NCBI GenBank assembly: GCA_033391075.1
Contig: JAWPMV010000001.1
Coordinates: 7,750,001-7,814,000, forward strand
DNA from: Bacteroidia bacterium
Lineage (GTDB): Bacteria > Bacteroidota > Bacteroidia > J057
Reading direction: 5' to 3'
DNA: 64,000 bases
The position numbers and the translations under genes are program-made. Of the stretch, positions 4,607-62,114 are shown piece after piece. The notes beneath the pieces were generated by a model, which saw only the letters and a list, made by a program, of their open reading frames with translations, did not search any database and was not told the origin of the DNA. Each line of letters starts with the position of its first letter. The stretch's first letter is position 1.

Positions 4607-7501
4607 ATGGCAGAGAATAAATGGATCTACATGGGCAAAGCCGTCATAAAAACTACTACGGAAAACTACCTTTCCGCATTTAAAAAACAGCTCAAAGGAG
4701 AAGTACTGGGAGATGCCTACAGTCTGGGGCTTTATGCAACGGATGCCAGCGTCTATCAAATGACTCCCAAAGTGGTCATCACTCCCAAAGATGAGGAAGA
4801 TGTCCTTGCTGCCCTTAAAATAGCTCAGGAATATTCACTCAATGTCTTGCCAAGAGGCGGAGGAACCAGTCTTGCTGGCCAAACGGTTGGAGATGCCCTG
4901 GTGCTGGATTTCTCTCGGCACATGAATCAGGTCATAGAACTGAATGTGGCAGAAAAATGGGTGCGGGTCCAACCGGGTATGGTTCGAGATGAACTCAATG
5001 CTTTTCTGAAACCTCATGGTTTACATTTCGCTCCTGATCCTGCCACTTCCAGCCGTGCCAATGTTGGAGGGATGATCGGAAACAATTCCTCGGGAACCAA
5101 GAGCATTTTGTATGGCAAGACCGTCGATCATGTCCTGGGATTAAAAATTGCTTTGGCAGATGGTCAGGTATTGGAGCTTGACGAAAAGTCTCAGCAGGAG
5201 CTTGAGCAACTTCAGGAAATGAATACTCGGGAAGGGCGACTGTATAAGCACTTTTCCAAACTCATTCATAAAAACCATACAGAAATAGATACGCGCTTTC
5301 CCAAAGTCATGAGAAGGGTTGGTGGCTATAATCTGGATGAATTTCCCCTAAATCAAAACTGGAATCTGGCTAAACTGCTATGTGGAAGTGAAGGTACTTT
5401 GGGGGTGAGTCTGGAATGTAAACTGAATTTGGAACCCCTGCCTGCTTATAAATCGGTTTGCGTAGTTCATTTTGCTGAGGTACTGGAAGCAATTATGGCT
5501 GTAGAGCCTATGCTGGATTTTCGACCTGCTGCAGTGGAGATTCTGGATAGGACCGTTTTAAATTTGAGTAGGGAGAATTTAACTACTAATAGGGCTTGTC
5601 ACTTTCTGGAAGGAGACGCAGCAGCCATCCTGATTGTAGAATTTTATTCCGATACTTTTGAGAATGTCATGGAGAGGCCTCGACATATGATCAAAATGTT
5701 GAAGGAGAAAGGATTGGGATATGCTTATCCTTTATTCCCCGAAGGAAAAGAATATGAGGATGTTTGGCTAATCCGAAAAAAAGGACTGGGCTTGATGTTG
5801 GGATTGAAAGGGGAAGCCAAGCCTTTGCCTTTCATTGAAGATTCCGGTATCCCCATAGAGGTCTTACCTGAATACATAGAGCGGGTATTAAAACTCTGTG
5901 AAGAAAATGAAACTCCAGTTGCCATGTATGCGCATGCAAGTGTAGGGGTGATACATGTTCGTCCCATTTTGGACTTGCGCAAAGAGATTGAAATTGAAAG
6001 ATTCAAAGCGATTTCAGAAGGTACTTTCCAGATGGTGCAGGAATATGGTGGTTCATGGAGTGGGGAACATGGAGATGGCCTGGTGAGAAGCTTTTATAAT
6101 GAACGCTACTTTGGAACAGAACTCTATCAGGTATTTAAAGAAATCAAAGCACTCTTTGATCCTAAAAACCGAATGAATCCGGGCAAGATTGTCGATTCTC
6201 CTTCAATAGACCAGAATCTCCGATATGGAGCTATCTATCAAGACCTTGAACCTGATACCATTTATCAATACAGAAAAGATGAGAACTTTGGGGCTTCGGT
6301 CCATATGTGTACAGGAGTAGGGGAGTGTCGAAAAATGCTGGGAGGAACCATGTGTCCCAGTTTTAAGGCGACCCGTGATGAAGAGCAGAGCACTCGTGGT
6401 AGAGCAAATGCCTTGCGTCTGGCTATGTCAGGGCAGTTGGAGGATGGTCTGGAAAGTAAGCGTTTGCAGGAAGTTATGGATCTCTGTCTTTCCTGTAAAG
6501 CTTGTAAATCTGAATGTCCCAGCAATGTGGATATGGCCAAGCTAAAAAGTGAGGTTCGGCAAATCTATATGGATAAAGCGGGTTTGAGTTTGCGTGACCG
6601 ATTGATTCGCGACTCAGCCAAAGCTTCCCGAAGATTTTCGGGTTTTTGGGCTCCCTTGGTCAATTTCATTCAAAAGACTTATTTGTTTCGCTGGCTATTA
6701 GAAAGTCTGGGAGGATTTGATAAAAGAAGAGTATTACCTGATTACGCCAGGCAAAGTTTTGCTTCCTGGTTTAGGTCGAGTGAGAGAAAAGGCAAGGGTG
6801 ATTTGGGGAAAGTGGTACTTTTCGCAGATACCTACCTCAATTATCATGAACCGAATATAGGCAAAGCCGCCACGCACCTACTGGAAGACTGCGGATATGA
6901 AGTGTTGCTGGCAGAGCCAGGTTGTTGTCAGCGACCTCGTATTTCCAATGGTTTTTTGCGGGAAGCCAAAGAAGCAGGAGGGGAAATGGCTGTAAAGCTG
7001 AAAGAATTCCTGGATCAGGGATTGCCTGTGTTAGTTTGTGAACCGAGTTGTGCCTCTGCTATGGTAGATGATTTGCCTGACTTATTGGAGGATGAAAGCC
7101 TTGCTTCACAATTATCCTCTCAGGTCAAAATGATTGATGTCTTTTTGGCAGAGGAAAAGACTGCCGGGAGACTAGAAGTCAACATTCGCCCGAAAGATAA
7201 AAGTCTTCTGCATGGGCATTGTCACCAGAAAGCAATGTTTGGAACAGCCTCTATGAAAAGTTTCTCCCCAGAGCTGGAAGAAATTCCCTCGGGTTGCTGT
7301 GGAATGGCAGGCTCTTTCGGCTATGAAAAAGAGCACTATGAAATATCGGAGAAAATCGGCTCAGAAATTCTTTTCCCTGCTGTAAAAGAAAAACCGAACA
7401 GCAAAATCATTGCATGTGGAGTGAGCTGTCGACATCAATTGGAGCATTTTACACAAACTCATGCCTTGCACTGGGTAGAAGCGGTGGAGGTGGTGAAATA
7501 A
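4607..7501 (+). CDS. FAD-linked / Fe-S oxidoreductase, D-lactate or D-2-hydroxyacid dehydrogenase (YdiJ-like fusion)
   Basis: 964 residues, a GlcD-like flavoprotein fused to a GlcF-like Fe-S subunit. The FAD domain shows PRGGGTSLAGQ (about 83-93), NVGGMIGNNSSG, LCGSEGTLG and SGEHGDGLVRS. A first Cys cluster (C568, C574, C583) and a classic 4Fe-4S set (C627, C630, C633, C637-Pro) follow. The C-terminus has two CCG-type modules (CCQRPR, CEPSC, HCHQKAM, GCCGMAGSFG). Proteins of this layout oxidise D-lactate or D-2-hydroxyglutarate and pass electrons towards quinone; which substrate applies here is open. An internal ATG at 4631 is an alternative start. It is probably co-transcribed with the M20 gene. 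Confidence 0.93.
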   Translation: MAENKWIYMGKAVIKTTTENYLSAFKKQLKGEVLGDAYSLGLYATDASVYQMTPKVVITPKDEEDVLAALKIAQEYSLNVLPRGGGTSLAGQTVGDALVLDFSRHMNQVIELNVAEKWVRVQPGMVRDELNAFLKPHGLHFAPDPATSSRANVGGMIGNNSSGTKSILYGKTVDHVLGLKIALADGQVLELDEKSQQELEQLQEMNTREGRLYKHFSKLIHKNHTEIDTRFPKVMRRVGGYNLDEFPLNQNWNLAKLLCGSEGTLGVSLECKLNLEPLPAYKSVCVVHFAEVLEAIMAVEPMLDFRPAAVEILDRTVLNLSRENLTTNRACHFLEGDAAAILIVEFYSDTFENVMERPRHMIKMLKEKGLGYAYPLFPEGKEYEDVWLIRKKGLGLMLGLKGEAKPLPFIEDSGIPIEVLPEYIERVLKLCEENETPVAMYAHASVGVIHVRPILDLRKEIEIERFKAISEGTFQMVQEYGGSWSGEHGDGLVRSFYNERYFGTELYQVFKEIKALFDPKNRMNPGKIVDSPSIDQNLRYGAIYQDLEPDTIYQYRKDENFGASVHMCTGVGECRKMLGGTMCPSFKATRDEEQSTRGRANALRLAMSGQLEDGLESKRLQEVMDLCLSCKACKSECPSNVDMAKLKSEVRQIYMDKAGLSLRDRLIRDSAKASRRFSGFWAPLVNFIQKTYLFRWLLESLGGFDKRRVLPDYARQSFASWFRSSERKGKGDLGKVVLFADTYLNYHEPNIGKAATHLLEDCGYEVLLAEPGCCQRPRISNGFLREAKEAGGEMAVKLKEFLDQGLPVLVCEPSCASAMVDDLPDLLEDESLASQLSSQVKMIDVFLAEEKTAGRLEVNIRPKDKSLLHGHCHQKAMFGTASMKSFSPELEEIPSGCCGMAGSFGYEKEHYEISEKIGSEILFPAVKEKPNSKIIACGVSCRHQLEHFTQTHALHWVEAVEVVK

Positions 7502-7508
7502 GATAGAT

Positions 7509-7598
7509 GTGTTCAGGTGTTCTTGTGTTCTCGTGTTCTGGAGCTTTGGGAAGCCTGGGAGAAATGCAACGCCAACACGCCAATACTCCAACACGTTA
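7509..7598. repeat. Octamer-phased inverted repeat element, copy 2
   Basis: The left arm is a clean 8-bp register: GTGTTCAG, GTGTTCTT, GTGTTCTC, GTGTTCTG (7509-7540). The right arm (about 7568-7598) reads AACGCCAA, CACGCCAA, TACTCCAA, CACGTTAA, the complementary style in the same period. It sits directly after the stop of the dehydrogenase gene and directly before a TGTCATTGCGA repeat. Confidence 0.75.
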
Positions 7599-7620
7599 AT
7601 AGGAAGACTTCAAACAGCCC

Positions 7621-7717
7621 TGTCATTGCGAGCCTGTACTACAGGCGAAGCAATCCCCTTGACTCAAAAATAGGTTATTGTGGTCAAGGAGATTGCTTCA
7701 CTTCGTTCGCAATGACA
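7621..7717. repeat. TGTCATTGCGA palindromic dispersed repeat, copy 1
   Basis: An 11-bp perfect terminal inverted repeat (TGTCATTGCGA at 7621-7631, TCGCAATGACA at 7707-7717) encloses a second inverted pair (GAAGCAATCCCCTTGA and TCAAGGAGATTGCTTC), so the whole 97 bp folds into one hairpin. The same element occurs at 31833-31935 in the opposite orientation. Repeats with this consensus are scattered through many bacterial genomes. It lies between two convergent genes. Confidence 0.85.
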
Positions 7718-7735
7718 GCGTATTTGCTGTTTACT

Positions 7736-9100
7736 TTATTTCGTCCCAGTCTCCGCTCTTCGGATTGCTCCGTAAATCATCTTCGTACAAGTATCAAAAT
7801 GCGGATCCACATTAGGATTGGGATTGCTTTGGGTCATGAGGAGAACCGTAAGGTCTTCGCTGGGATCAGACCAGTAGCGCGTCTTGAAGTATCCTCCCCA
7901 GCCAAAAGCTCCATCCTTCTCAGGATAGGTGGCATGCTCTGGAGTAGGAGAAATGGAAACGCCCAATCCATAGGGAAAATCATGAGACGTATTATTGGCG
8001 CACATGCGTTGTACGGTCGTATCATTGAGGATGCGGACTCCATTGAGTTCTCCACCATTGGTCAGCATGAGGGCGAAACGAGCGTAGTTCTCGGTAGTTC
8101 CGCAAAGTCCACCACCACCGCTGAAATAGGTCTTGGCTCCATTGACAGCAAAATTCATGAGGAGTTCGCCTGCAGAGTCTATCTGGGCCTCCGTAAAATC
8201 TGGATAAAGAGCCTTCACACCTTGTCTGGCAATTTGATCCGATTTAACGGCATTTCCCAAACCTCCTTCTTCTGAATAGGAGATAACCGGCAACATGCGA
8301 TCCCGGTAAGAATCTTCGAGGTAAAAACCAGTATCATCCATTCCCAGCGGATCGAAAATTCTTTCTTGCATGAACTGATCCAGTGGCATTCCGGAAAGAA
8401 CTTCCACCAAATAGCCCGTCATATCAATTCCTAAACCATAGGTCCATTTTTCTCCGGGTTGATGGAGTAAGGGAAGACCCGCGAGGGTTTTCATTTTATC
8501 GGCCAATACAAAAGGCTCCAGGCTCCAGGCATCATTTACACCTGCCTGGGCATACATGATGCCTGCTTCTGGCTGTACAAATCCATAGCCTAATCCAGAA
8601 CTGTGAGTGAGTAAATTGCGGACGGTTAGCTCACGATTAGCAGGAACGGTAGTTCGGCTATAATCTTCAGGATTGAGGCTATCCAAAACCTGGGTGTTGG
8701 CAAATTCGGGGATGTATTTGGAAACCGGATCATCCAGTTTGAATTTTCCTTCCTGATAAAGAATCATAGCCGCAACAGCAGTAACAGGCTTGGTCATAGA
8801 GGCCATGCGGAAGATTTGGCCTTCGCGTAAAGGCTGCTTTTTTTCCAAATCCTCAAAACCGATCCGACTGTTGTGAACAATCTTTCCCCCACGAATAACC
8901 ATAGCTTCAATACCTGGTAATTTCCCTTCATCTACCAAAGCTTGGGATACACTATCCATTTTGGCAAACATAGCTGCATCCATAGAGGCTTCGTCCGGAT
9001 TGCTGGCCGGAATCTCATAGCGAGCTACGGTTTCAGGAGTAGTTTTACAGGAAATAAGGAAAAAAAGAGGGGCGAGTACGAGTAGTAGCGTTCGTTTCAT
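7736..9100 (-). CDS. Serine beta-lactamase-fold hydrolase (class C / EstB type), lipoprotein
   Basis: 454 residues with a signal sequence ending in a lipobox (FLISC, Cys18). The SxxK catalytic motif is SMTK (Ser101, Lys104) in the expected place, followed by the family pattern KWTYGLGIDMTGYLVEVLSG; the usual YxN Tyr appears as Y-G-L. Members of Pfam Beta-lactamase (CubicO/EstB group) are esterases or peptidases; true beta-lactam resistance is unlikely. It probably acts in the periplasm or on the cell surface. The gene is convergent with the D-lactate-type dehydrogenase; pcm lies 51 bp upstream on the same strand. Confidence 0.9.
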   Translation of the reverse strand: MKRTLLLVLAPLFFLISCKTTPETVARYEIPASNPDEASMDAAMFAKMDSVSQALVDEGKLPGIEAMVIRGGKIVHNSRIGFEDLEKKQPLREGQIFRMASMTKPVTAVAAMILYQEGKFKLDDPVSKYIPEFANTQVLDSLNPEDYSRTTVPANRELTVRNLLTHSSGLGYGFVQPEAGIMYAQAGVNDAWSLEPFVLADKMKTLAGLPLLHQPGEKWTYGLGIDMTGYLVEVLSGMPLDQFMQERIFDPLGMDDTGFYLEDSYRDRMLPVISYSEEGGLGNAVKSDQIARQGVKALYPDFTEAQIDSAGELLMNFAVNGAKTYFSGGGGLCGTTENYARFALMLTNGGELNGVRILNDTTVQRMCANNTSHDFPYGLGVSISPTPEHATYPEKDGAFGWGGYFKTRYWSDPSEDLTVLLMTQSNPNPNVDPHFDTCTKMIYGAIRRAETGTK

Positions 9101-9151
9101 TTAGATGTAGATTTACACCTAAGTTAAGAAGGATATAGATAAAAATATAGA

Positions 9152-9802
9152 TCACTCTTCAAATCCATACTTCCCCCTCAGGGGCACAAAATGGAAATGA
9201 TCCAGTTTATGGATTTCAAATTCTCTTCGGCTGATCTTTTTCACCAAAGTCATTTGCTGCTGACTGAGGTTGCCGACGGGAAGGATCATCATGCCTCCGA
9301 TTTCCAATTGTTGCTTTAGGCTTTCGGGTATGCCGGGACTGGCGGCCGTAACAATGATGCGTTCGTAAGGTTGAAAGGTCGGCCAACCCATAGAGCCATC
9401 TCCTTTGTGGAGTTTAACTTTCAGACCCAGATTGTCTAGTCTTTCTTTCGCTTCCCTATGTAAACGGGCATCTATTTCTACGCTAAAGACCCGCATTCCC
9501 ATAGCTGCAAGAATCGCTGCCTGATAACCAGAACCTGTACCGACTTCCAGGATCTTCATTTTGGGTTTGAGATCAAGGCTATAGGTTTGGTAGGCAACAG
9601 TAAATGGTTGGCTAATGGTTTGTCCACTTTGAATGGGCAGGGCCTTATCCTCATAGGCTTCGTGCTGGAAGGCATTTTCTACAAATAAATGCCGGGGAAC
9701 TTTGGCAATAGCATCCAGAATCCGGGGATCATTGATTCCCTTCTCTTCCAATTCTTCAACAAGTCTGGCTCTTTGCCCTTTATGTTTATAAGTATCCAGC
9801 AA
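9152..9802 (-). CDS. pcm: Protein-L-isoaspartate O-methyltransferase
   Basis: 216 residues, normal family length. It carries the Pcm signature VPRHLFVENAFQHEAYEDK, the substrate-binding GQTISQPFTVAYQT and the SAM-binding motif ILEVGTGSGYQAAILA. The enzyme methylates L-isoaspartyl residues in aged proteins with SAM, starting their repair. The start is TTG: an in-frame stop lies 18 bp upstream, no ATG fits, and the N-terminal sequence (DTYKHKGQRARLVEEL) is already the conserved family start. It is divergent from gcvP, and the 157-bp gap must hold both promoters. Confidence 0.93.
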   Translation of the reverse strand: MLDTYKHKGQRARLVEELEEKGINDPRILDAIAKVPRHLFVENAFQHEAYEDKALPIQSGQTISQPFTVAYQTYSLDLKPKMKILEVGTGSGYQAAILAAMGMRVFSVEIDARLHREAKERLDNLGLKVKLHKGDGSMGWPTFQPYERIIVTAASPGIPESLKQQLEIGGMMILPVGNLSQQQMTLVKKISRREFEIHKLDHFHFVPLRGKYGFEE

Positions 9803-9889
9803 TTTTTTAGGAAAATTTTAATAGTCGCTGCCAATTTTTGAGGAGTACAAATCTAGCAATTCTTGGCTTCATAATTCGTCCAAATGAGT

Positions 9890-9897
9890 TAACTTTG
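9890..9897 (+). promoter_or_regulatory. Promoter -7 element TAACTTTG upstream of gcvP
   Basis: TAACTTTG fits TAnnTTTG exactly. A TTG at 9863-9865 could be the -33 element, though the 24-bp spacer is slightly long. Transcription would start near 9904, giving a leader of about 55 nt that includes a 16-codon ORF (9913-9963) whose stop overlaps the gcvP start as ATGA. Confidence 0.55.
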
Positions 9898-9959
9898 TGA
9901 AACTTTTTTCAGATGCAAAAAGTTAAGTTCTCAATCTCATCACTCGAACTTAAAAACAG

Positions 9960-12839
9960 ATGATCAAGCACCCCGATTTTTTTGTAGATCGCCATTTAGG
10001 ACCCACAGCTCAGGAACAGGAAAAAATGCTCAAAAGCCTGGGATTAGATTCTTTGGATGAGCTGGTAAATCAGACCATCCCCGGAAAGATCAGGCTGGAG
10101 AAAGAGCTTTCTCACAAAGAGGCTCTGAGTGAGTATGACTACCTGCAGATGCTGAAAGGGAAGGCTGCAAAAAATAAAATATTTCGCTCATATATTGGGC
10201 AAGGTTATTACGATTGTATCACGCCCTCTGTGATCCTTCGAAACATCTTTGAAAATCCCGGTTGGTATACCCAGTATACTCCATATCAGGCCGAGATTGC
10301 TCAAGGTCGATTGGAAGCTCTGTTAAACTTCCAGACCATGGTTTCTGACTTTACAGGACTGCCTGTTGCCAATGCATCCTTATTGGATGAGGGAACGGCT
10401 GCAGCTGAGGCTATGGCCATGACTTATGGGCAGAAAAAGAAAAAAGACAGAAAGTCTCAGGCCAATGTATTTCTGGTCGATGCCAATGCTTTCCCACAAA
10501 GCATAGAGGTAATTCAAACCCGTGCGGATGCTGCAGGTTTTGAAGTGCGCGTATCTGACCCTAAAGATTTTGTGATAAATGAAGAAGTATTCGCTGCTTT
10601 CATCCAATATCCCAATGCGGAAGGAGAAGCCAGGGAGTACAAAGAGCTAGCGGAAAAACTGCATGCGCAGAAGAGTTATCTGGTAGTAGCTTCTGATTTG
10701 ATGGCTTTGGCCATGTTGGAAGCTCCGGGAAGTTTTGGTGCTGATGTTGTTGTAGGTTCTGCTCAAAGATTTGGCGTGCCTATGGGATTCGGAGGCCCTC
10801 ATGCAGCTTTCTTTGCCACAAAAGAAGATTTCCTCCGCATGATCCCCGGTCGTATCATCGGAGTTTCCATTGATACAAATGAGAATCCTGCTTTGCGGAT
10901 GACCTTACAGACCCGCGAGCAGCATATAAAAAGAGACCGCGCTACTTCTAATATCTGTACCGCTCAGGCCTTATTGGCCATTATGGCTTCTATGTATGCC
11001 GTCTACCATGGGCCTGTCAGAATCAGAAAAATTGCAGAGCGTATCCATACCAATGCCGGTAATCTCTATAATGGATTGAAAGCATTGGGCATTACGGCTA
11101 AGCATAGTGCTTTCTTCGATACCTTAAGGATTGAGTTGAGTGATGCCCAAATGGGTTCTCTTAAAGAGAAAGCGCAGGCCAATCAGATGAATTTCTTTTA
11201 TGGAGAAGGGGAAGTTGGAATTGCGTTGGATGAAACGACAAGTGAAAAAGAGGTAAGAGAAATTTTGGGTCTTTTTGAGCACGTAAGTGGAACTTCTTTA
11301 AACGGATTCCAACAATCTACTGCGGCTGGAAGCTTCATTCCAGCTTCCTTGGCAAGAGGAGTAGATTACCTCAGCCATCCCATCTTTAATTCCTATCACT
11401 CTGAGACCGCGATGATGCGTTATCTCAAATTGTTGGAGAATAAGGACTTGTCTTTAACTCATGCGATGATCCCCTTAGGTTCATGTACCATGAAGTTGAA
11501 TGCAGCTACCGAATTGATGCCGGTAAGTTGGCCAGAGTTTGCTAAAATCCATCCCTTTGCTCCTAAAGATCAGAGTGAAGGTTATGCAGAGATCATTGAT
11601 GACCTGGGGAAAGACCTTTGCGAAATCACCGGTTTTGCCGGAATGTCTTTCCAGCCCAATTCAGGTGCGCAGGGAGAATATGCCGGACTGATGGTAATCA
11701 GAGCTTATCATCATGACAGAGGCGATCATCATAGAAATGTAGCCTTGATCCCTTCATCTGCTCACGGTACCAATCCGGCCAGTGCAGTTATGGCAGGGAT
11801 GAAAGTGGTGGTTACTGCTTGTGATGAAATGGGCAATATCGATATGGATGATCTTCGGGCGAAAGCAGAAGCACATAGCGAAAACCTTTCCTGCCTGATG
11901 GTTACCTATCCTTCTACGCATGGCGTATTTGAGGAATCCATCATGGATATATGTGAGCTGATCCACCAACATGGAGGGCAAGTGTATATGGATGGAGCCA
12001 ATATGAATGCACAGGTTGGGCTGACAAGTCCCGGAAGGATCGGAGCGGATGTTTGCCACCTGAATTTGCATAAAACATTTTCTATTCCACATGGAGGTGG
12101 AGGCCCGGGTATGGGACCTATTGGGGTTGCCGAGCATTTGGTGCCTTTCCTTCCGGGGCATGGATTGGCTGAGTATGGAGGAGATAAATCTATTTCTGCG
12201 CTTTCAGCGGCTCCATTTGGAAGTGCAAGTATTCTCTTGATTTCCTATGCTTATGTGAAACTGCTGGGCAGTGAGGGGTCAAGAAAAGCTACTGAGTATG
12301 CCATTCTTAATGCCAACTACATGAAGAATCGCCTGGAAGAGCACTATCCGGTCCTTTTTCAAGGAAGCAATGGCAGAGTAGCACATGAGTTTATACTCGA
12401 TCTGAGAGAGTTTAAACACAAGCTGGGGCTGGAAGTAGATGATATCACCAAGCGATTGATTGACTATGGTTTCCATGCGCCTACAGTTTCCTGGCCCGTT
12501 CCCGGAACGATCATGATTGAGCCTACAGAAAGTGAGCCTCTATCTGAACTGGATAGGTTCTGTGATGCGATGATTGCTATCAGAGAAGAGATCAAAGAGA
12601 TCGATATGGGCATAGCGGATGCAGAGGACAATGTGCTAAAACATTCTCCACATACCCTGGCTGAAATTACAACAGATGACTGGCAACATGCTTATTCTCG
12701 TGAAAAAGCAGCCTTCCCGGTCGCGAGCTTACGATTAATGAAATTCTGGCCAGCAGTGGCAAGGGTGAACAATACCTTCGGAGACAGAAATGTAGTCTGT
12801 ACTTGTCCGCCCCTTGAGGCCTATATGGAAGAAGTATAA
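9960..12839 (+). CDS. gcvP: Glycine dehydrogenase (aminomethyl-transferring), P-protein
   Basis: 959 residues, the full-length single-chain form in which both halves (GcvPA and GcvPB in other lineages) are fused. The PLP lysine is K705 in NLHKTFSIPHGGGGPGMGPIGV; the upstream SSAHGTNPASAVMAGM and the N-terminal SFYxDCG-equivalent region (SYIGQGYYDCITPSVI) also match. With GcvT, GcvH and lipoamide dehydrogenase it decarboxylates glycine and feeds one-carbon units to THF. The other gcv genes are not in the window. The gene is followed by a strong bidirectional terminator. Its promoter element is listed separately. Confidence 0.98.
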   Translation: MIKHPDFFVDRHLGPTAQEQEKMLKSLGLDSLDELVNQTIPGKIRLEKELSHKEALSEYDYLQMLKGKAAKNKIFRSYIGQGYYDCITPSVILRNIFENPGWYTQYTPYQAEIAQGRLEALLNFQTMVSDFTGLPVANASLLDEGTAAAEAMAMTYGQKKKKDRKSQANVFLVDANAFPQSIEVIQTRADAAGFEVRVSDPKDFVINEEVFAAFIQYPNAEGEAREYKELAEKLHAQKSYLVVASDLMALAMLEAPGSFGADVVVGSAQRFGVPMGFGGPHAAFFATKEDFLRMIPGRIIGVSIDTNENPALRMTLQTREQHIKRDRATSNICTAQALLAIMASMYAVYHGPVRIRKIAERIHTNAGNLYNGLKALGITAKHSAFFDTLRIELSDAQMGSLKEKAQANQMNFFYGEGEVGIALDETTSEKEVREILGLFEHVSGTSLNGFQQSTAAGSFIPASLARGVDYLSHPIFNSYHSETAMMRYLKLLENKDLSLTHAMIPLGSCTMKLNAATELMPVSWPEFAKIHPFAPKDQSEGYAEIIDDLGKDLCEITGFAGMSFQPNSGAQGEYAGLMVIRAYHHDRGDHHRNVALIPSSAHGTNPASAVMAGMKVVVTACDEMGNIDMDDLRAKAEAHSENLSCLMVTYPSTHGVFEESIMDICELIHQHGGQVYMDGANMNAQVGLTSPGRIGADVCHLNLHKTFSIPHGGGGPGMGPIGVAEHLVPFLPGHGLAEYGGDKSISALSAAPFGSASILLISYAYVKLLGSEGSRKATEYAILNANYMKNRLEEHYPVLFQGSNGRVAHEFILDLREFKHKLGLEVDDITKRLIDYGFHAPTVSWPVPGTIMIEPTESEPLSELDRFCDAMIAIREEIKEIDMGIADAEDNVLKHSPHTLAEITTDDWQHAYSREKAAFPVASLRLMKFWPAVARVNNTFGDRNVVCTCPPLEAYMEEV

Positions 12840-12842
12840 CAT

Positions 12843-12871
12843 AAAAAAGCCCCTCATCGAGGGGCTTTTTT
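12843..12871. terminator. Bidirectional intrinsic terminator between gcvP and tesB
   Basis: A perfect GCCCCTC / GAGGGGC stem with an ATC loop is flanked by six A's on the left and six T's on the right, so it works on both strands. It serves gcvP (+) and the convergent thioesterase gene (-). Confidence 0.95.
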
Positions 12872-12876
12872 ATGCG

Positions 12877-13800
12877 TTATTTTTTATTCTTATCCTTCAC
12901 TACCCGTATCAATCCTTCCTGGGTAACCGAAGCAACGAGGATTCCCTCCTGATTGAAAATACTTCCCCTCGTAAAGCCCCTTGCGTTAGAGGCACTGGGA
13001 CTGTCTATCGCATATAGCAACCACTCATCCGAACGGAAGTTGCGGTGAAACCACATGGCGTGGTCAATGCTGGCAATGATGATCTTTTCCTTGTAGAAGG
13101 AAAGGTTATGGGGTAGCATGGCCGAGGTCAATAAATTGAAATCGGAAGCATAGGCTACCAGGTAACGATGCAAGGCATGATTGTCTGCGGCCACCTTGCC
13201 ATTTGCCCGAAACCATACATGCTTAAAGGGAGGTCTTTTTCCGGGATTAAAGGGATTGATGTCTTCAACAGGTCTGATCTCAATGGGCCAGTCCTTTCTT
13301 TTGAACACGGAGGAAATCTCAAGGCCTTCTTTTTCCCATTTGGTTATGGATTCCTGATAGCTGGCCAATGATTCCGGATGGGGAACATTGAGCATATTGA
13401 TCTGATGTTCGGCACCTTCCTCTTCGATCTGAAAAGAAGCCGCCATATTGAAGATCGGCCTTCCATGCTGAACGGCGACAACCCTTCTGGTCGTAAAACT
13501 CCTACCGTCTCGGATGGTATCTACTTCGTACACAATAGGAGCTTTGATGTCTCCGGGAAGAATGAAATAGGCATGCATAGAATGCGCCAATCTGTCTTTC
13601 GGAACGGTGCGAGTAGCTGCATTGAGTGCCTGAGCCAATACCTGTCCACCAAAGACTGATCGGCTGCCAATGTCTATGGTATTTCCCCGGAAAATATTCT
13701 CTTCAATCTTTTCCAGTTCCAGGGTATTTATCAGAAAATCTAAGGGATTCATAATTGGGTTTGCTGAAGATGAACTAGCCATTTTGATTTTCTTTTGCAT
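12877..13800 (-). CDS. tesB: Acyl-CoA thioesterase II
   Basis: 307 residues. The TesB double hotdog is recognised by LEKIEENIFRG near the start, FGGQVLAQAL in the first half, and the second-half core DHAMWFHRNFRSDEWLLY followed by SPSASNARGFTRGSIFNQEG. It hydrolyses medium- and long-chain acyl-CoAs to free fatty acids and CoA in the cytoplasm. Start choice is uncertain: codons 1, 7 and 17 (13800, 13782, 13752) are all ATG and the last matches the E. coli protein best; with the first two the gene overlaps the end of sufE, which suggests translational coupling in a sufE-tesB transcript. Confidence 0.93.
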   Translation of the reverse strand: MQKKIKMASSSSANPIMNPLDFLINTLELEKIEENIFRGNTIDIGSRSVFGGQVLAQALNAATRTVPKDRLAHSMHAYFILPGDIKAPIVYEVDTIRDGRSFTTRRVVAVQHGRPIFNMAASFQIEEEGAEHQINMLNVPHPESLASYQESITKWEKEGLEISSVFKRKDWPIEIRPVEDINPFNPGKRPPFKHVWFRANGKVAADNHALHRYLVAYASDFNLLTSAMLPHNLSFYKEKIIIASIDHAMWFHRNFRSDEWLLYAIDSPSASNARGFTRGSIFNQEGILVASVTQEGLIRVVKDKNKK

Positions 13801-57073: not shown

Positions 57074-60000
57074 ATGAAATCCCTTCCGGTGATATTTTTG
57101 GCTTTTGCCAACGATCGGGTAGATGCTGCGAGATATTTGCGAAATCTGCCACTCGAACAAAGGCAAATTTATGAAGTATTGGAGGCTGCAGAAGAGGCGA
57201 AGCTTTGTGAAATAGTTTCTATTTCCAATGCCACGATCAAACAGATCATAGATACTTTCCAGAAAGAGCGCTACAAAGATCGGATAGCCATTTTTCACTT
57301 TGGTGGGCATGCAGATGGTTATCAATTATTATTGGAAACAGAGACTGGAGAACATGAAGTCGCTCACGGCAAAGGCCTGGTTTCTTTCCTTTCTCGCCAA
57401 AGATCACTGCAATTGGTATTCTTAAATGGATGTACTACCGAGCAGCAATCGCAGGAATTGGTTGATGCTGGAGTTCCTTTGGTTATTGGTACAAACTCCT
57501 CGATCTCAGATAATGTCGCTACCCGTTTGGCCGTTCGATTTTACGGAAGTCTGGCCAATGGTGCCAATCTCCTGCATGCCTGGCGGGATGCCGAGGATGA
57601 AATTCACATCAGAACTGCTGGGACAAGTTCTTCCTCACGGAGCCTTGATTTTGGCTTGTGGAACGATGAAGTAGTTCGCGATGCTTTCCCCTGGCGGCTG
57701 ATTCTGAGAGAGGGAGCAGAAATTGTGGAAGAGTGGAATCTGCCGGATGCCGCTAACAATCCCTTGTTTGGCCTTCCCAATCCCCCTAAAAAAGACTTGC
57801 CGGAAGAACCTTTTCGTTTTCTCAAATGGTACGAGGCGGATCATGCAGAAATCTTTTTTGGAAGGTCTTACGTGATCCGGAATCTATACGAGCGAATCAC
57901 AGATGAACATACGGCTCCTTTACTTTTACTATACGGTAAATCTGGAGTTGGTAAATCTTCTCTGTTGGATGCGGGCTTGTTACCCCGCTTAAGACAGATG
58001 TCGGAAGTAAAATATGTCCGGATTTCAAACGAATATACCTTGCTGAAAAGCCTAAGGCAGCAATTGGAGGAAAAGGAAGAAGATAAGGGAAAGAGCTTAA
58101 AGAAACTGTGGCAGGAAAAAGAGGAAGTGGCAGGAAAAGCCCAGGTTATCATCCTGGATCAGTTGGAGGGTATCTATACCGAAGGAAATGAAAATCGAGA
58201 GGCAGAATTAGAGGAACTCCTCGTTCAGCTGAAAGAAGTTTTTCAGGAAGTTTCGGACCGACCCAATGGTAAACTGATTCTTTCTTACCGAAAAGAGTAC
58301 CATGCTGAGATTGAAAAAACCTGTAAGGGCCTGCAAATTCCACGTGAACAAGTCTATCTACCAGCTTTGGCGAGAAAGGACATTATGGAAGTGGTAGGTG
58401 GATTAAGTTCTACGGAACGTTTGAGACGAAAATACCGATTGGAAGTAGACGAACTGCTTCCTACTATAATAGCAGACGATCTTTTGGTGGATAGCCATTC
58501 CTCCATAGCTCCAGTTTTGCAAATTCTATTGACGAAGATGTGGGAGTTAACTGAGACAGAGGAAAAACGCCACTTCAGCGTAGAAAACTACAATCGACTA
58601 TTGAAGGAAGGCATTTTGCTGGATGATTTCTTCGAACAGCAAACGCAGAAAATACGACAGCTTCATCCAGATGCCGAAAGTTCGGGTTTGATCATTGATC
58701 TGCTCAACCATCACACAACTGATTTTTCCACAGCTAGAAGCAGAGGTTTGGAGGAACTGAGGAAGCGCTACCTGCATCGGGAAGATGTATTGGAGACAAT
58801 CCTGCAAGAGTTGAAGCAGCTATACCTGCTAACAGATATTGGTGGAAAAACCACCCTGGCCCATGATACCCTGGCGCCTTTGGTTCAAAAAGAATTTAAA
58901 GAGTCTGATCGTCCCGGCCAGCGTGCAATACGGATTCTGGAAAGCAAACGGCCGAGCTTCGAGCAAAATAAGGAAGTCTACCTGGATGCGGATGACCTGG
59001 AATTGGTGGAGCAGGGGAAAGCAGGTATGCGCTTCTGGATAAAAAAAGAGGAAGAATTGATAGAGAGGAGTCGACTGAGGAAGGCGAAGTTGGAGAAGGA
59101 AAGAGCACGCAATAAACGCTTTAAGCAAATTGCAGTTGCCGGCCTTGCATTATTCTCCGTGGTGATTAGTTACCTGGGCTATCAGGCCTATCAGGAGGCC
59201 AGAGCCAATGAGAAGGTCGTCATGGCACTTGAAGTAGAAAGAACCGATGCAACCCAGGCATTGAGGTTAGCGGCTGAAGGCCAGGCCATCAAACCGGATA
59301 ACAAGGCGATAAGGCAAACCTTAAGCAGAATTTATGCTTCTAATGAGTTTTACCAGGATACTTACCAACAAAGGAGTCCGATACGAGCTTTGGCTTTATC
59401 TCCAGACGGCAAGCTTGTACTTAGCGGAGATGAAAATGGGCGAATTTGGCGTTGGGATGAAGGGGGAAACTTACTGGATTCAGCTAAGGTGTATGAGGAG
59501 GCCCTCCATGAGATAGTATTTACTCCAGATGGCGAATTTTATGCTACAGCGGCCAATGATTCAAGACTGTTGATATGGACTAAAGGAGGGGAAATATTTG
59601 AGCGATTAAAAGGTGATGGAACCCCTTTTACGAGTCTGGTATTCTCAACGGACGGGAAACAATTGTTGGGAGGTACGAGAGATGGGAAAATATGGATATG
59701 GTCATGGAAAACTGGAAAATTGGATACCAGTTTTGTTGCGCATGGGGGTAGTTTTCGAGGAGTAAAGTCATTGGATTATTCATCTGATGGACAACGTTTT
59801 CTCAGTGCGAGTGCTGATACCTCTGCAAAAGTATGGACTAGGAAAGGGGAGTTGATTCGAAAGCTGGATGCACGCTCAGATTGGGTTTTGAGCGCTTATT
59901 TCTCAGATAATGATCAATATATTTTGACAGCAAGTAGGGACAAGTCTGCAATATTATGGGACACTACAGGGAAAAAAATAGTTCAGCTTAAAGGGCATAC

Positions 60001-61216
60001 CAATAGAGTTACTAAAGCCTATTTTGGGCCTGGTGAGAATTTATTTACATCCGGTGCCGACGGAATAATCATTCAGTGGGATAAAGACGGAAACCAATTA
60101 AAAAAGTATGTAGGTCATGGAAATGCCATTAATGCTTTAGCATTTGATGAAAAAGCGAGGGTTTTCTTTTCTGCGAGTGAAAATGGAACTATTAGAAAGT
60201 GGGAAATTGATTCGAAAATAGCTAGACAATTGCTACATCCTCAGATTTCAACTACAACCTTGTTTACTGTTGGCCTTGGAGCGAATAATCTTTCTTTTGA
60301 TGGAAGCTTGTTAGCGACCGGAGGGGAAAAGAAATATTTGAGTAATTATGTAAGATTTACTGATCAAAGCACCCATGCTCTCCCCATTCGTATTTGGGAT
60401 TTACGTAATAAGAATACATACGATCTCGAAGGGCATGAGGCAGATATTAGTTCGCTTGCCTTTTCTCCTGATGCTAAGTCGCTTCTTTCAGGCTCTATGG
60501 ATGGATCACTCATATTTTGGACCCTTCCAACATCTAAGAGTCCAAAGTCCGAATCTAAAATTATCGGAACCCATAATGGAGGTTGCACACTTGTGAATTG
60601 GTCACAAGATGCATCATTTTTCATAAGTTCCGGACTAGATAGCCTGTTAAATATTTGGAACTCCAATGGTGAACTTTTGCAAAGCTTTAGGGGGGAAGAT
60701 TGGATCAGAACAGCTGCAATTTTCCCTGACGGAAAAACCATCTTAACTGGAGCAACTGATGGAAGCTTAAAACTCTGGGAAGTCGGAGGGGCTGAGGAGC
60801 CTAGTGCGATTTGGAAAGAACATCAAACAGCTGTTCGGAGCATTTGCTTTTCTCCTGACGGAAAATATCTAGCAAGTGGTGATCTCTCAAACACTCTCAT
60901 TCTATGGAATGATGAGGGGGAGATAATATGGAAGAAAGATCTTTCTGGAACAAGCCTCAGCGGTAGCGGTGCCATAAAGGACATAGAATTCTCCCTAGAT
61001 TCCAGGCAGATCATTTATGCTAGTGCTGATGGAGGGGCTAATATTCTGGACCTTAATGGGAACCTCTTGCAAAGCATGCAGGAGACAGCCGTTAAATTTA
61101 CTGGGGTAGGATTCGCCCCCGACGGAAATACCGTTTTTTGCGCCGGGGACGATGGCATGGTTCGATTTTATTATACCCTGGAGGGATATCTTGAACATCA
61201 GGGTATGAATAATTAA
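57074..61216 (+). CDS. CHAT protease - STAND ATPase - TM - WD40 protein
   Basis: 1380 residues. CHAT caspase-like domain 1-215 with His79 (HFGGHADG) and Cys120 (FLNGCTT), the expected His/Cys dyad. STAND (nSTAND1-type) ATPase about 255-620: FFGRSYVIRNL, Walker A GKSGVGKSS (288-296), Walker B VIILDQLE (358-365), then a helical region. A basic stretch (SRLRKAKLEKERARNKRFK, 666-684) leads into one TM segment (685-703). Residues about 765-1375 hold about 14 WD40 repeats, one of them (about 1050-1105) irregular, i.e. two seven-bladed propellers. By the positive-inside rule the CHAT and ATPase are cytoplasmic and the WD40 part is outside. The family includes NLR-like immunity and cell-death proteins. 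Stop is 4 bp from the convergent gene. Confidence 0.93.
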   Translation: MKSLPVIFLAFANDRVDAARYLRNLPLEQRQIYEVLEAAEEAKLCEIVSISNATIKQIIDTFQKERYKDRIAIFHFGGHADGYQLLLETETGEHEVAHGKGLVSFLSRQRSLQLVFLNGCTTEQQSQELVDAGVPLVIGTNSSISDNVATRLAVRFYGSLANGANLLHAWRDAEDEIHIRTAGTSSSSRSLDFGLWNDEVVRDAFPWRLILREGAEIVEEWNLPDAANNPLFGLPNPPKKDLPEEPFRFLKWYEADHAEIFFGRSYVIRNLYERITDEHTAPLLLLYGKSGVGKSSLLDAGLLPRLRQMSEVKYVRISNEYTLLKSLRQQLEEKEEDKGKSLKKLWQEKEEVAGKAQVIILDQLEGIYTEGNENREAELEELLVQLKEVFQEVSDRPNGKLILSYRKEYHAEIEKTCKGLQIPREQVYLPALARKDIMEVVGGLSSTERLRRKYRLEVDELLPTIIADDLLVDSHSSIAPVLQILLTKMWELTETEEKRHFSVENYNRLLKEGILLDDFFEQQTQKIRQLHPDAESSGLIIDLLNHHTTDFSTARSRGLEELRKRYLHREDVLETILQELKQLYLLTDIGGKTTLAHDTLAPLVQKEFKESDRPGQRAIRILESKRPSFEQNKEVYLDADDLELVEQGKAGMRFWIKKEEELIERSRLRKAKLEKERARNKRFKQIAVAGLALFSVVISYLGYQAYQEARANEKVVMALEVERTDATQALRLAAEGQAIKPDNKAIRQTLSRIYASNEFYQDTYQQRSPIRALALSPDGKLVLSGDENGRIWRWDEGGNLLDSAKVYEEALHEIVFTPDGEFYATAANDSRLLIWTKGGEIFERLKGDGTPFTSLVFSTDGKQLLGGTRDGKIWIWSWKTGKLDTSFVAHGGSFRGVKSLDYSSDGQRFLSASADTSAKVWTRKGELIRKLDARSDWVLSAYFSDNDQYILTASRDKSAILWDTTGKKIVQLKGHTNRVTKAYFGPGENLFTSGADGIIIQWDKDGNQLKKYVGHGNAINALAFDEKARVFFSASENGTIRKWEIDSKIARQLLHPQISTTTLFTVGLGANNLSFDGSLLATGGEKKYLSNYVRFTDQSTHALPIRIWDLRNKNTYDLEGHEADISSLAFSPDAKSLLSGSMDGSLIFWTLPTSKSPKSESKIIGTHNGGCTLVNWSQDASFFISSGLDSLLNIWNSNGELLQSFRGEDWIRTAAIFPDGKTILTGATDGSLKLWEVGGAEEPSAIWKEHQTAVRSICFSPDGKYLASGDLSNTLILWNDEGEIIWKKDLSGTSLSGSGAIKDIEFSLDSRQIIYASADGGANILDLNGNLLQSMQETAVKFTGVGFAPDGNTVFCAGDDGMVRFYYTLEGYLEHQGMNN

Positions 61217-61220
61217 ATCC

Positions 61221-62105
61221 CTAATTATTCCGAACCGCCTTTCTACCTTCTATTTTTGCCCTCCCAGGACCGACTCTTCTCCTTAACTTACTGTTTAGGT
61301 AAGTGTTGACCCATTCTCTATTTTCCGGCGAGTCTCCTAATCCGTGAGCGTGATTAAATAAATCCATGAGATTATTTATGGTTTTATATCTGTTTGGTCC
61401 ACTTTGTAAGGCGTTAGTATTAATCTTTAGGAAGTGATTGATTTCACGTTTGATCTTCTCTTCATCAAGAAAAATAGGCCTAAATGTCCCTAACTTAGTA
61501 TAGGTTTCATATCGATAATAAACGTTTAAGGGGCCAGCTTCCCGGGGATTGATTGGGTTCCCATCAACTATATATATTTTAGCCTCTTTAAAGGAGATCT
61601 GGTTGTTCTGGGTATACATATATTTCGTGACTCTCTTACCCTTGTAAGAATAATCAATTCTAAAAGGGGCCAGCTTTCTTGGGATAGGAAGGTGCCTGAT
61701 GGGAATAGAAAATTCTTCACCCAGGATAACTCTCTTGGGTTCTGAAAAGAAAGATTTCAAAAATGCTATTTCTCCTTTGGCATTTTGAGGTGGAGTAAGG
61801 TTGAATTGATACCCATCGTCCTTAAGAGGAATCAGTTTATTTTTCTTCTTTCCTTCAGCTAGCGTAGGTATCAGAACGTAATTTACTCTGGTATCAGCAT
61901 TTAACATAAGAGCCATGGCAGTAGTATCGCCTTTATCAATTAAGCAGAGCTCGGTAATTGAATTTATATTGATGATATCTCCATGATGCAACTGCCGGTC
62001 AGTGGTACATAACTTTACAATCCCGAAAGTTTCAATTATGGTGTACTTAGCTGCAGAAAGATAGCCGCAAAGGCTTATCAAAAGAATGCTTAAAAAGGTT
62101 CTCAT
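61221..62105 (-). CDS. Exported protein of unknown function, convergent with the CHAT gene
   Basis: 294 residues from the ATG at 62105 (MRTFLSILLISLCGYLSAAK, a signal peptide); a TTG three codons earlier is in frame. The start of the mature part (YTIIETFGIVKL...LHHGDIININSITELCLIDKGD) has the look of a small beta-barrel domain that I associate with exported proteins found beside CHAT genes in other Bacteroidota; this is recollection, not a search result. The C-terminal half is helical and basic. It ends 4 bp from the CHAT-STAND-WD40 gene and so is linked to it physically but not by a common transcript. Confidence 0.7.
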   Translation of the reverse strand: MRTFLSILLISLCGYLSAAKYTIIETFGIVKLCTTDRQLHHGDIININSITELCLIDKGDTTAMALMLNADTRVNYVLIPTLAEGKKKNKLIPLKDDGYQFNLTPPQNAKGEIAFLKSFFSEPKRVILGEEFSIPIRHLPIPRKLAPFRIDYSYKGKRVTKYMYTQNNQISFKEAKIYIVDGNPINPREAGPLNVYYRYETYTKLGTFRPIFLDEEKIKREINHFLKINTNALQSGPNRYKTINNLMDLFNHAHGLGDSPENREWVNTYLNSKLRRRVGPGRAKIEGRKAVRNN

Positions 62106-62114
62106 CAGATTCAA

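What the first reader, a model, noticed from the sequence alone, without database searches (positions are those of the whole stretch)
57074..61216. Membrane-spanning CHAT-STAND-WD40 protein with protease inside and propellers outside
A caspase-like CHAT domain (His79/Cys120) and a complete STAND ATPase (Walker A 288-296, Walker B 358-365) are joined through one TM segment (685-703) to about 14 WD40 repeats. The strongly basic segment before the TM and its absence after it predict protease and ATPase in the cytoplasm and WD40 repeats in the periplasm. If true, this is an NLR-like device that senses something outside the inner membrane and cleaves something inside: a transmembrane bacterial death or immune receptor rather than a soluble one. 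All catalytic motifs appear intact.
Basis: partly seen in the sequence, partly recalled or inferred. Interest (0 to 1): 0.8.

Follow-up and report, generated by a model that had tools for sequence, protein, structure and literature searches.

The report
Membrane-spanning caspase-like bacterial receptor
This gene appears to encode a receptor through a bacterium's inner membrane, with a likely sensor outside and a caspase-like protein cutter inside, one of a widespread and little-studied family that may trigger cell defence or cell death.

Summary
ORF 57074-61216 (+) is intact: CHAT protease domain (H79/C120), nSTAND1 ATPase (Walker A and B), one hydrophobic segment (aa 683-703) behind a very basic stretch, then about 14 WD40 blades (AF2 pLDDT 90).

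This TM alone is weak by hydropathy; relatives carry the case. 68 of 75 CHAT-nSTAND1 frames have a TM at this junction, with more K+R before than after in 64 of 68. Behind the TM, at least 5 of 40 regions in an nSTAND1 survey carry OmpA or LysM. In four relatives, two of them this protein's nearest on the tree, the protein stops after the TM and the next gene is an LRR or WD40 protein with a signal-peptide-like start. In one pair the non-repeat part is 54% identical to the part fused behind the TM elsewhere. Sensor outside, protease and ATPase inside is well supported by comparison, without experiment.

That it is an immune or death receptor is inferred: other nSTAND1-TM genes sit beside SIR2, TIR, DUF4062 or CHAT effectors. 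This gene's neighbours are not defence genes. Caspase-STAND-WD40 proteins are a known kind; this outward-facing layout, with scattered TM loss, is a little-described variant.

The parts
57074..61216 (+). CDS, 1380 aa, CHAT - nSTAND1 - TM - WD40
57074..57793 (+). CHAT protease domain (aa 1-240)
   Evidence: Pfam PF12770 E=1.4e-10 over aa 12-176; phmmer to 8tl0 (CHAT domain-containing protein) E=5.5e-11, aa 8-180
57308..57310 (+). His79 codon, predicted catalytic His
   Evidence: invariant in 42 sequences; aligned with a His of 8tl0
57431..57433 (+). Cys120 codon, predicted catalytic Cys
   Evidence: invariant in 42 sequences; aligned with a Cys of 8tl0
57809..58948 (+). nSTAND1 ATPase region with its C-terminal part (aa 246-625)
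   Evidence: Pfam PF20703 8.6e-33, aa 246-601
57935..57961 (+). Walker A, aa 288-296
   Evidence: G288, G293, K294, S295 and S296 invariant in 42
58145..58171 (+). Walker B, aa 358-366
   Evidence: D362 and E365 invariant in 42
59042..59236 (+). one continuous predicted helix, aa 657-721, carrying the basic stretch, the TM and the start of the outer linker
   Evidence: AF2 model, mean pLDDT 89.6, pTM 0.78
59120..59182 (+). transmembrane segment, aa 683-703; K+R 10 in the 20 aa before, 2 in the 20 aa after the 19-mer 683-701
59183..59341 (+). helical outer linker, aa 704-756 (three helices)
   Evidence: AF2 model
59351..61180 (+). WD40 propellers, about 14 blades, aa 760-1369
   Evidence: Pfam WD40; AF2 pLDDT 90.3, pTM 0.86; Foldseek best hits 2ymu (E 5e-49), then Apaf-1 3shf (E 2e-38), TM-score by query length about 0.4

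Best explanation
A single-pass inner-membrane receptor of NLR-like logic. Supported by sequence comparison: CHAT and nSTAND1 precede a conserved TM with the positive-inside charge pattern, and the part behind the TM is an exchangeable module (WD40, LRR, FGE; OmpA or LysM in related systems) that lies outside the inner membrane. Inferred: the propellers, alone or with an envelope partner, meet a ligand or a damaged cell wall in the periplasm; the signal passes along one continuous helix through the membrane (aa 657-721); nSTAND1 exchanges nucleotide and the receptors assemble in the plane of the membrane; the CHAT domains are brought together and cut a cytoplasmic substrate, so that an attack is met by cell death, growth arrest or release of an effector.
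For: Domains and motifs. TM at the junction in 68 of 75 frames; K+R before > after in 64 of 68, 2 ties, 2 reversed. Survey by the ATPase alone, 53 nSTAND1 hits: 41 with a TM (35 in the same ORF, 6 in the next), 9 without, 3 cut off; bias inside in 41 of 41, though some of these are near-copies. OmpA behind the TM in L023, L039 and L142, LysM in L040 and L143: at least 5 of 40 post-TM regions. Stub forms: L051, L116, L053 and L057 end 77-128 aa after the TM and are followed at 239, 3, -10 and 18 bp by a gene with a signal-peptide-like start and LRR, LRR, WD40 and WD40-type domains. L116's LRR protein matches the part fused behind the TM in L128: 44% over 390 columns, and 54% over 101 aa in the stretch before the repeats. 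Two stubs of the other survey, L137 and L140, are followed by SP-like genes too. SP-like next gene: 6 of 7 stubs against 17 of 89 fused forms, p=0.0006; only those with a next gene, 6 of 6 against 17 of 48, p=0.004; with L125 counted as a miss, 6 of 8, p=0.002. Effectors before nSTAND1-TM: CHAT, SIR2 with EAD11, TIR, DUF4062, caspase C14. Nearest solved CHAT by sequence and fold: 8tl0, 'activated SAVED-CHAT filament'.
Against: No experiment. This protein's TM is among the weaker ones (5 of 68 lower). TM-less relatives keep propellers, so propellers need not be periplasmic. Cys content does not separate the compartments (0.50% in 37 TM+ WD40 regions, 0.80% in 4 TM-; post-TM lower than the N-part in 24 of 37). 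Two stubs do not fit: L034 has no downstream gene, and L125 is followed by a lipoprotein-like gene that I read, from recall, as a glycoside hydrolase. The stub rule was seen in four loci before it was counted. No ligand, no substrate, no defence genes beside it; PADLOC gives only partial matches.
Confidence: 0.62

Rival explanations
1. Envelope-integrity guard rather than anti-invader receptor: the outer part reads the state of peptidoglycan or of the producer's own envelope proteins and the CHAT domain then cuts a regulator (for example an anti-sigma factor), giving repair or arrest and not death.
For: OmpA and LysM in the sensor position in five related systems; SP-like partners downstream of 17 of 89 fused forms; the gene lies beside PSCyt/DUF1501 and GH127 genes. 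CalpL, a type III CRISPR protease, cuts the anti-sigma factor CalpT (PMC11417357, passages seen).
Against: Other effectors found with the same ATPase-TM module (SIR2, TIR, DUF4062) are of kinds that destroy NAD+ (DUF4062: PMC13174449; SIR2 and TIR: recalled), which fits death better than repair.
Confidence: 0.25
2. A cytoplasmic NLR-like protein tethered to the inner face: aa 683-703 is a membrane anchor or buried helix and the propellers stay inside.
For: Weak hydropathy (1.75; shuffles reach it somewhere in 888 of 2000); TM-less relatives with propellers; WD40 is mostly known as a cytoplasmic fold (recalled).
Against: OmpA and LysM behind the TM of related systems; separately encoded sensors with signal-peptide-like starts; consistent charge bias.
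Confidence: 0.08
3. Recognition of self or kin in a multicellular or social bacterium: the variable outer domains match surface molecules of neighbours and the protease punishes mismatch.
For: Many CHAT-like matches in one 9.5 Mb genome; the sensor label changes 22 times on a tree of 79 rows, with a crude WD40/other label; fungal NWD proteins as analogue (recalled).
Against: No variation within a species was examined; no tandem DNA repeat was found in the propeller part of this gene.
Confidence: 0.05

Closest known systems
Metacaspase-NACHT-WD40 and metacaspase-CHASE2 proteins (PMC3501461, passages seen)
   Same: Protease, STAND ATPase and WD40 in one bacterial chain; the CHASE2 example was already read as receptor outside and protease inside
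   Different: Peptidase C14 and not CHAT, NACHT and not nSTAND1; the NACHT-WD40 form was not described as transmembrane in the passages seen
DGR-diversified STAND antigen sensors (PMC10907252, passages seen)
   Same: nSTAND1 or NACHT with a C-terminal sensor (CLec/FGE), proposed antigen sensing, cytoplasmic or periplasmic localisation predicted for different targets
   Different: Lectin-type sensor made variable by a diversity-generating retroelement; a split signal-peptide sensor was not described in the passages seen
EACC1/EACC2 caspase systems and iSTAND ternary systems (PMC7159879 and PMC8195603, passages seen)
   Same: Caspase-superfamily constant part with a variable C-terminus, sometimes behind a TM; PEGA, OmpA and others behind a TM in iSTAND systems
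   Different: Other component sets; there the variable domain is mostly read as effector, here as sensor
SAVED-CHAT, PDB 8tl0
   Same: Only significant solved match to the CHAT domain by sequence and best by fold; entry title 'activated SAVED-CHAT filament'; activation by assembly is recalled
   Different: Soluble, triggered by a cyclic nucleotide (recalled), no STAND, TM or WD40
Apaf-1
   Same: STAND ATPase followed by two propellers; Foldseek hit of the propeller model (3shf)
   Different: Cytosolic, recruits caspase-9 through CARD instead of carrying a protease, no TM (recalled)

Membership tests
CHAT (PF12770) proteases | Pfam domain over its cut-off, His/Cys dyad | tested here: met
   41.6 bits against cut-off 24; H79 and C120 invariant in 42 and aligned with His and Cys of 8tl0
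CHAT (PF12770) proteases | Proteolytic activity | not testable with these tools
   needs a biochemical assay
nSTAND1 (PF20703) | Domain over cut-off with Walker A and B | tested here: met
   114.9 bits against 27.1; motifs
WD40 repeat proteins | WD40 blades over the Pfam cut-off, propeller fold | tested here: met
   253.9 bits against 27; AF2 pLDDT 90.3, 55 strands
Single-pass receptor with outside sensor | TM at the junction across the family with positive-inside bias | tested here: met
   68 of 75 frames; 64 of 68
Single-pass receptor with outside sensor | Relatives carry envelope domains or secreted sensors in that position | tested here: met
   OmpA in 3 and LysM in 2 of 40 post-TM regions at least; 6 of 8 stubs with an SP-like sensor or TPR-type next gene
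Single-pass receptor with outside sensor | The WD40 part of this very protein lies in the periplasm | not testable with these tools
   needs reporter fusions or labelling
Known anti-phage systems in PADLOC-DB | Match to a model of a known or candidate defence protein | tested here: inconclusive
   four models at E<=0.1: HEAT-ARM_XIII 1e-32 over a part of the WD40 side (31-240 of 1972 profile positions), mad8 4.6e-6 over the ATPase, NsnB 0.0057, DolB 0.02; whether Avs, bNACHT or CARD-NLR models are in that library was not checked
Known anti-phage systems in PADLOC-DB | Protects against phage | not testable with these tools
   needs a plaque assay

The most novel reading that the evidence does not exclude
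A broad bacterial class of outside-in NLRs: one chassis (exchangeable killer domain + nSTAND1 + signalling helix through the membrane + exchangeable outer sensor, fused or supplied as a secreted partner), in which repeated loss of the TM moves the same receptor between guarding the periplasm and guarding the cytoplasm.
Probability: 0.5. Interest if true: 0.78.

Novelty: new variant of a known kind. Interest (0 to 1): 0.62.

Why it matters
NLR-like receptors are thought of as cytosolic. If this class works as its anatomy says, bacteria have receptors that read the space outside the inner membrane and fire a caspase-like protease or a NAD+-destroying effector inside, combining the placement of a Toll-like receptor with the ATPase switch of an NLR. 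Stub plus secreted-sensor pairs, and TM-plus and TM-minus relatives, make compartment, ligand and signalling across the membrane directly testable.

Tried and rejected
A full-length single-protein scan of genome contigs found no relative; a profile of CHAT+nSTAND1 gave 79 loci, a capped list: the pattern rows hit their limit at 581, 205 encoded a relative, the best 80 were kept. The tail-to-tail neighbour 61221-62114 (-) as a partner: no other match in the own genome; 4 of 60 genomes match, one of them the own genome and three weakly (E 2e-8 to 2e-4); I took it as unrelated. Cys content as a compartment test: inconclusive. Tandem repeats in the propeller DNA: none found. A threshold of 1.35 called some false TMs inside or at the end of the outer part (for example L068, L107, L126); they were not counted as stubs. 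The WD40/other label on the tree is a crude regex; it missed WD40 members that Pfam found. Scattering of TM loss on the tree is not distinguishable from random labels (7 changes; shuffled mean 7.8, 98 of 500 as low), and the tree is a quick one with many weak forks.

Rows dropped: of 78 frames, 75 had at least 100 aa after nSTAND1. Of 31 TM+ regions not labelled WD40, 27 were scanned (A2, with L125 added); L084 (second frame), L086, L089 and L110, cut by contig ends, were left out. Of 68 TM+ frames 41 plus this protein went into A4. The nSTAND1 survey used 53 hits (overlapping genome sets); left out were this gene itself, G005:C826 (L044, which has a TM) and a second hit in one ORF. L125 is not among the 7 stubs; with it there are 8. 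All 40 post-TM regions went through Pfam over, but one search shows only the 25 commonest of 72 families for 22 of them, so counts of rarer domains are lower bounds and absence of cytoplasmic-type domains is not claimed. One search tested 10 of the 33 upstream ORFs, picked because their starts did not look like CHAT; it shows the kinds of effector, not their share.
Full report
What is there. The ORF 57074-61216 (+) reads without a stop for 1380 aa. The AF2 model of the part behind the TM (38 sequences) has pLDDT 90.3 and 55 strands, which fits two seven-bladed propellers. The AF2 model of aa 1-763 (42 sequences) has pLDDT 89.6 and shows one unbroken helix from 657 to 721, through the TM. H79, C120, K294 and D362 are invariant in these 42 sequences.

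Is the TM real? By hydropathy alone it is modest: Kyte-Doolittle 1.75, and shuffles of this protein reach that somewhere in 888 of 2000, and within aa 650-730 in 57 of 2000. In the family it is solid. A profile search of named genomes gave 79 loci (the best of 205 relatives, a capped list), whose titles name Saprospiraceae, Cytophagales, Planctomycetaceae, Calditrichia, KSB1, Anaerolineae, Gemmatimonadetes, Acidobacteriota and others. Of 75 frames with at least 100 aa after nSTAND1, 68 have a TM there (cut-off 1.35; four are under 1.6), at a median of 48 aa after the aligned end (33 to 86, one at 142), median hydropathy 2.24. K+R in the 20 aa before exceeds that in the 20 aa after in 64 of 68, with 2 ties and 2 reversed; in this protein 10 against 2.

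Which side is the sensor on? Three lines agree. (a) Charge: besides the figures above, a survey by the ATPase alone (PF20703; 13 genomes of the family and 119 of the class, overlapping sets) gave 53 hits that I examined: 41 have a TM in the same ORF (35) or in the next (6), 9 have none, 3 are cut off, and the bias is inside in 41 of 41; some are near-copies. (b) Domains behind that TM: L023, L039 and L142 carry OmpA, L040 and L143 carry LysM, domains known to bind peptidoglycan (recalled); L023, L039 and L040 are in this very genome. (c) Split sensors: in L051, L116, L053 and L057 the CHAT-nSTAND1-TM protein ends 77-128 aa after the TM and the next gene, at 239, 3, -10 and 18 bp, starts with a signal-peptide-like sequence and carries LRR, LRR, WD40 and WD40-type repeats (L051's and L053's next genes run off the contig). 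L116's LRR protein matches the part fused behind the TM in L128 over 390 columns at 44%; since repeats can align by chance order, I checked the 101 aa before the repeats alone: 54% identical, E 1e-34. L051 and L116 are the sister group of this protein on the tree (SH-aLRT 85, not a starred branch). Two stubs of the other survey, L137 and L140, show the same arrangement. SP-like next gene: 6 of 7 stubs, 17 of 89 fused forms, p=0.0006; among those that have a next gene 6 of 6 against 17 of 48, p=0.004. Against: L034 has no downstream gene and L125 is followed by a lipoprotein-like gene of another kind. Signal peptides were judged by hydropathy and by eye, not by a dedicated program.

What is inside? 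Next to or before nSTAND1-TM there is CHAT (Pfam-tested in L026; others by their start), SIR2 in six of ten upstream genes tested and EAD11 in five of those six (one under its cut-off), TIR and DUF4062 in others, caspase C14 in L030. The ten were chosen for not looking like CHAT. DUF4062 was reported to be a TIR-like NADase in an anti-phage system (PMC13174449, a preprint; abstract and passages seen). The best solved match of the CHAT domain, by sequence and by fold, is 8tl0, titled activated SAVED-CHAT filament. The propeller model matches 2ymu and Apaf-1 among many WD40 structures, with TM-scores by query length near 0.4, so this says fold and not kinship.

TM loss. In a quick tree of 79 rows, 8 lack the TM and need 7 changes (starred branches force 6); 5 of the 8 keep WD40. 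Some of the other TM-less rows may be broken genes (L100 looks frameshifted). So propellers of this kind seem able to work on either side, which is both the most interesting point and the main caution.

How it most likely works. Outer propellers detect a ligand or a change in the envelope; the continuous helix carries the signal; nSTAND1 assembles the receptors in the plane of the membrane; clustered CHAT domains cut a cytoplasmic target. Supported by comparison: topology and modularity. Inferred: ligand, assembly, substrate and outcome.

Context. The gene lies between PSCyt/DUF1553 and DUF1501 genes and a GH127 gene, GC 0.44 against 0.43 for the window. The neighbours scanned are not defence genes. 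The neighbour 61221-62114 (-) is unrelated as far as tested.

Literature. Nine searches of an open-access library. Only two papers there hold the word nSTAND1. Caspase-STAND-WD40 chains, caspases with outside receptors and STAND proteins with periplasmic sensors have each been predicted (PMC3501461, PMC10907252, PMC7159879, PMC8195603; passages seen). In those passages I did not find the CHAT-nSTAND1-TM-WD40 family, its split signal-peptide form or the TM loss described; most subscription papers were not searchable, and supplements were not seen.

Noticed in passing
L024:6339-8450 (-) and 8914-13731 (-): A CHAT-like ORF of 703 aa without TM lies just downstream of a CHAT-nSTAND1-TM-WD40 paralogue; it could be a second protease or a substrate.
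   Followed up: no
L022:6564-10001 (+) and L049:5760-9290 (+): Close relatives (49-50% identical in the CHAT-nSTAND1 part) with an FGE-type domain behind the TM in place of WD40; no search for a diversity-generating retroelement nearby was made.
   Followed up: partly
L163:1050-2345 (+); L155:9946-11541 (-): Effectors that join SIR2 with TIR, and TIR with DUF4062, upstream of nSTAND1-TM genes.
   Followed up: partly
L040:4201-8440 (+): Guanylate cyclase-SIR2 protein, nSTAND1 protein and a TM-LysM protein in a row.
   Followed up: partly
L035:5906-6781 (-) and 7006-7857 (-): Two small CHAT-like ORFs with a hydrophobic segment near the C-terminus and no ATPase.
   Followed up: no
L115, L120, L122: A second strongly hydrophobic segment at the extreme C-terminus of the post-TM region.
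   Followed up: no
window 61221-62114 (-): Secreted-looking protein without a Pfam family over its cut-off, tail to tail with the receptor gene, no paralogue found in the genome.
   Followed up: yes
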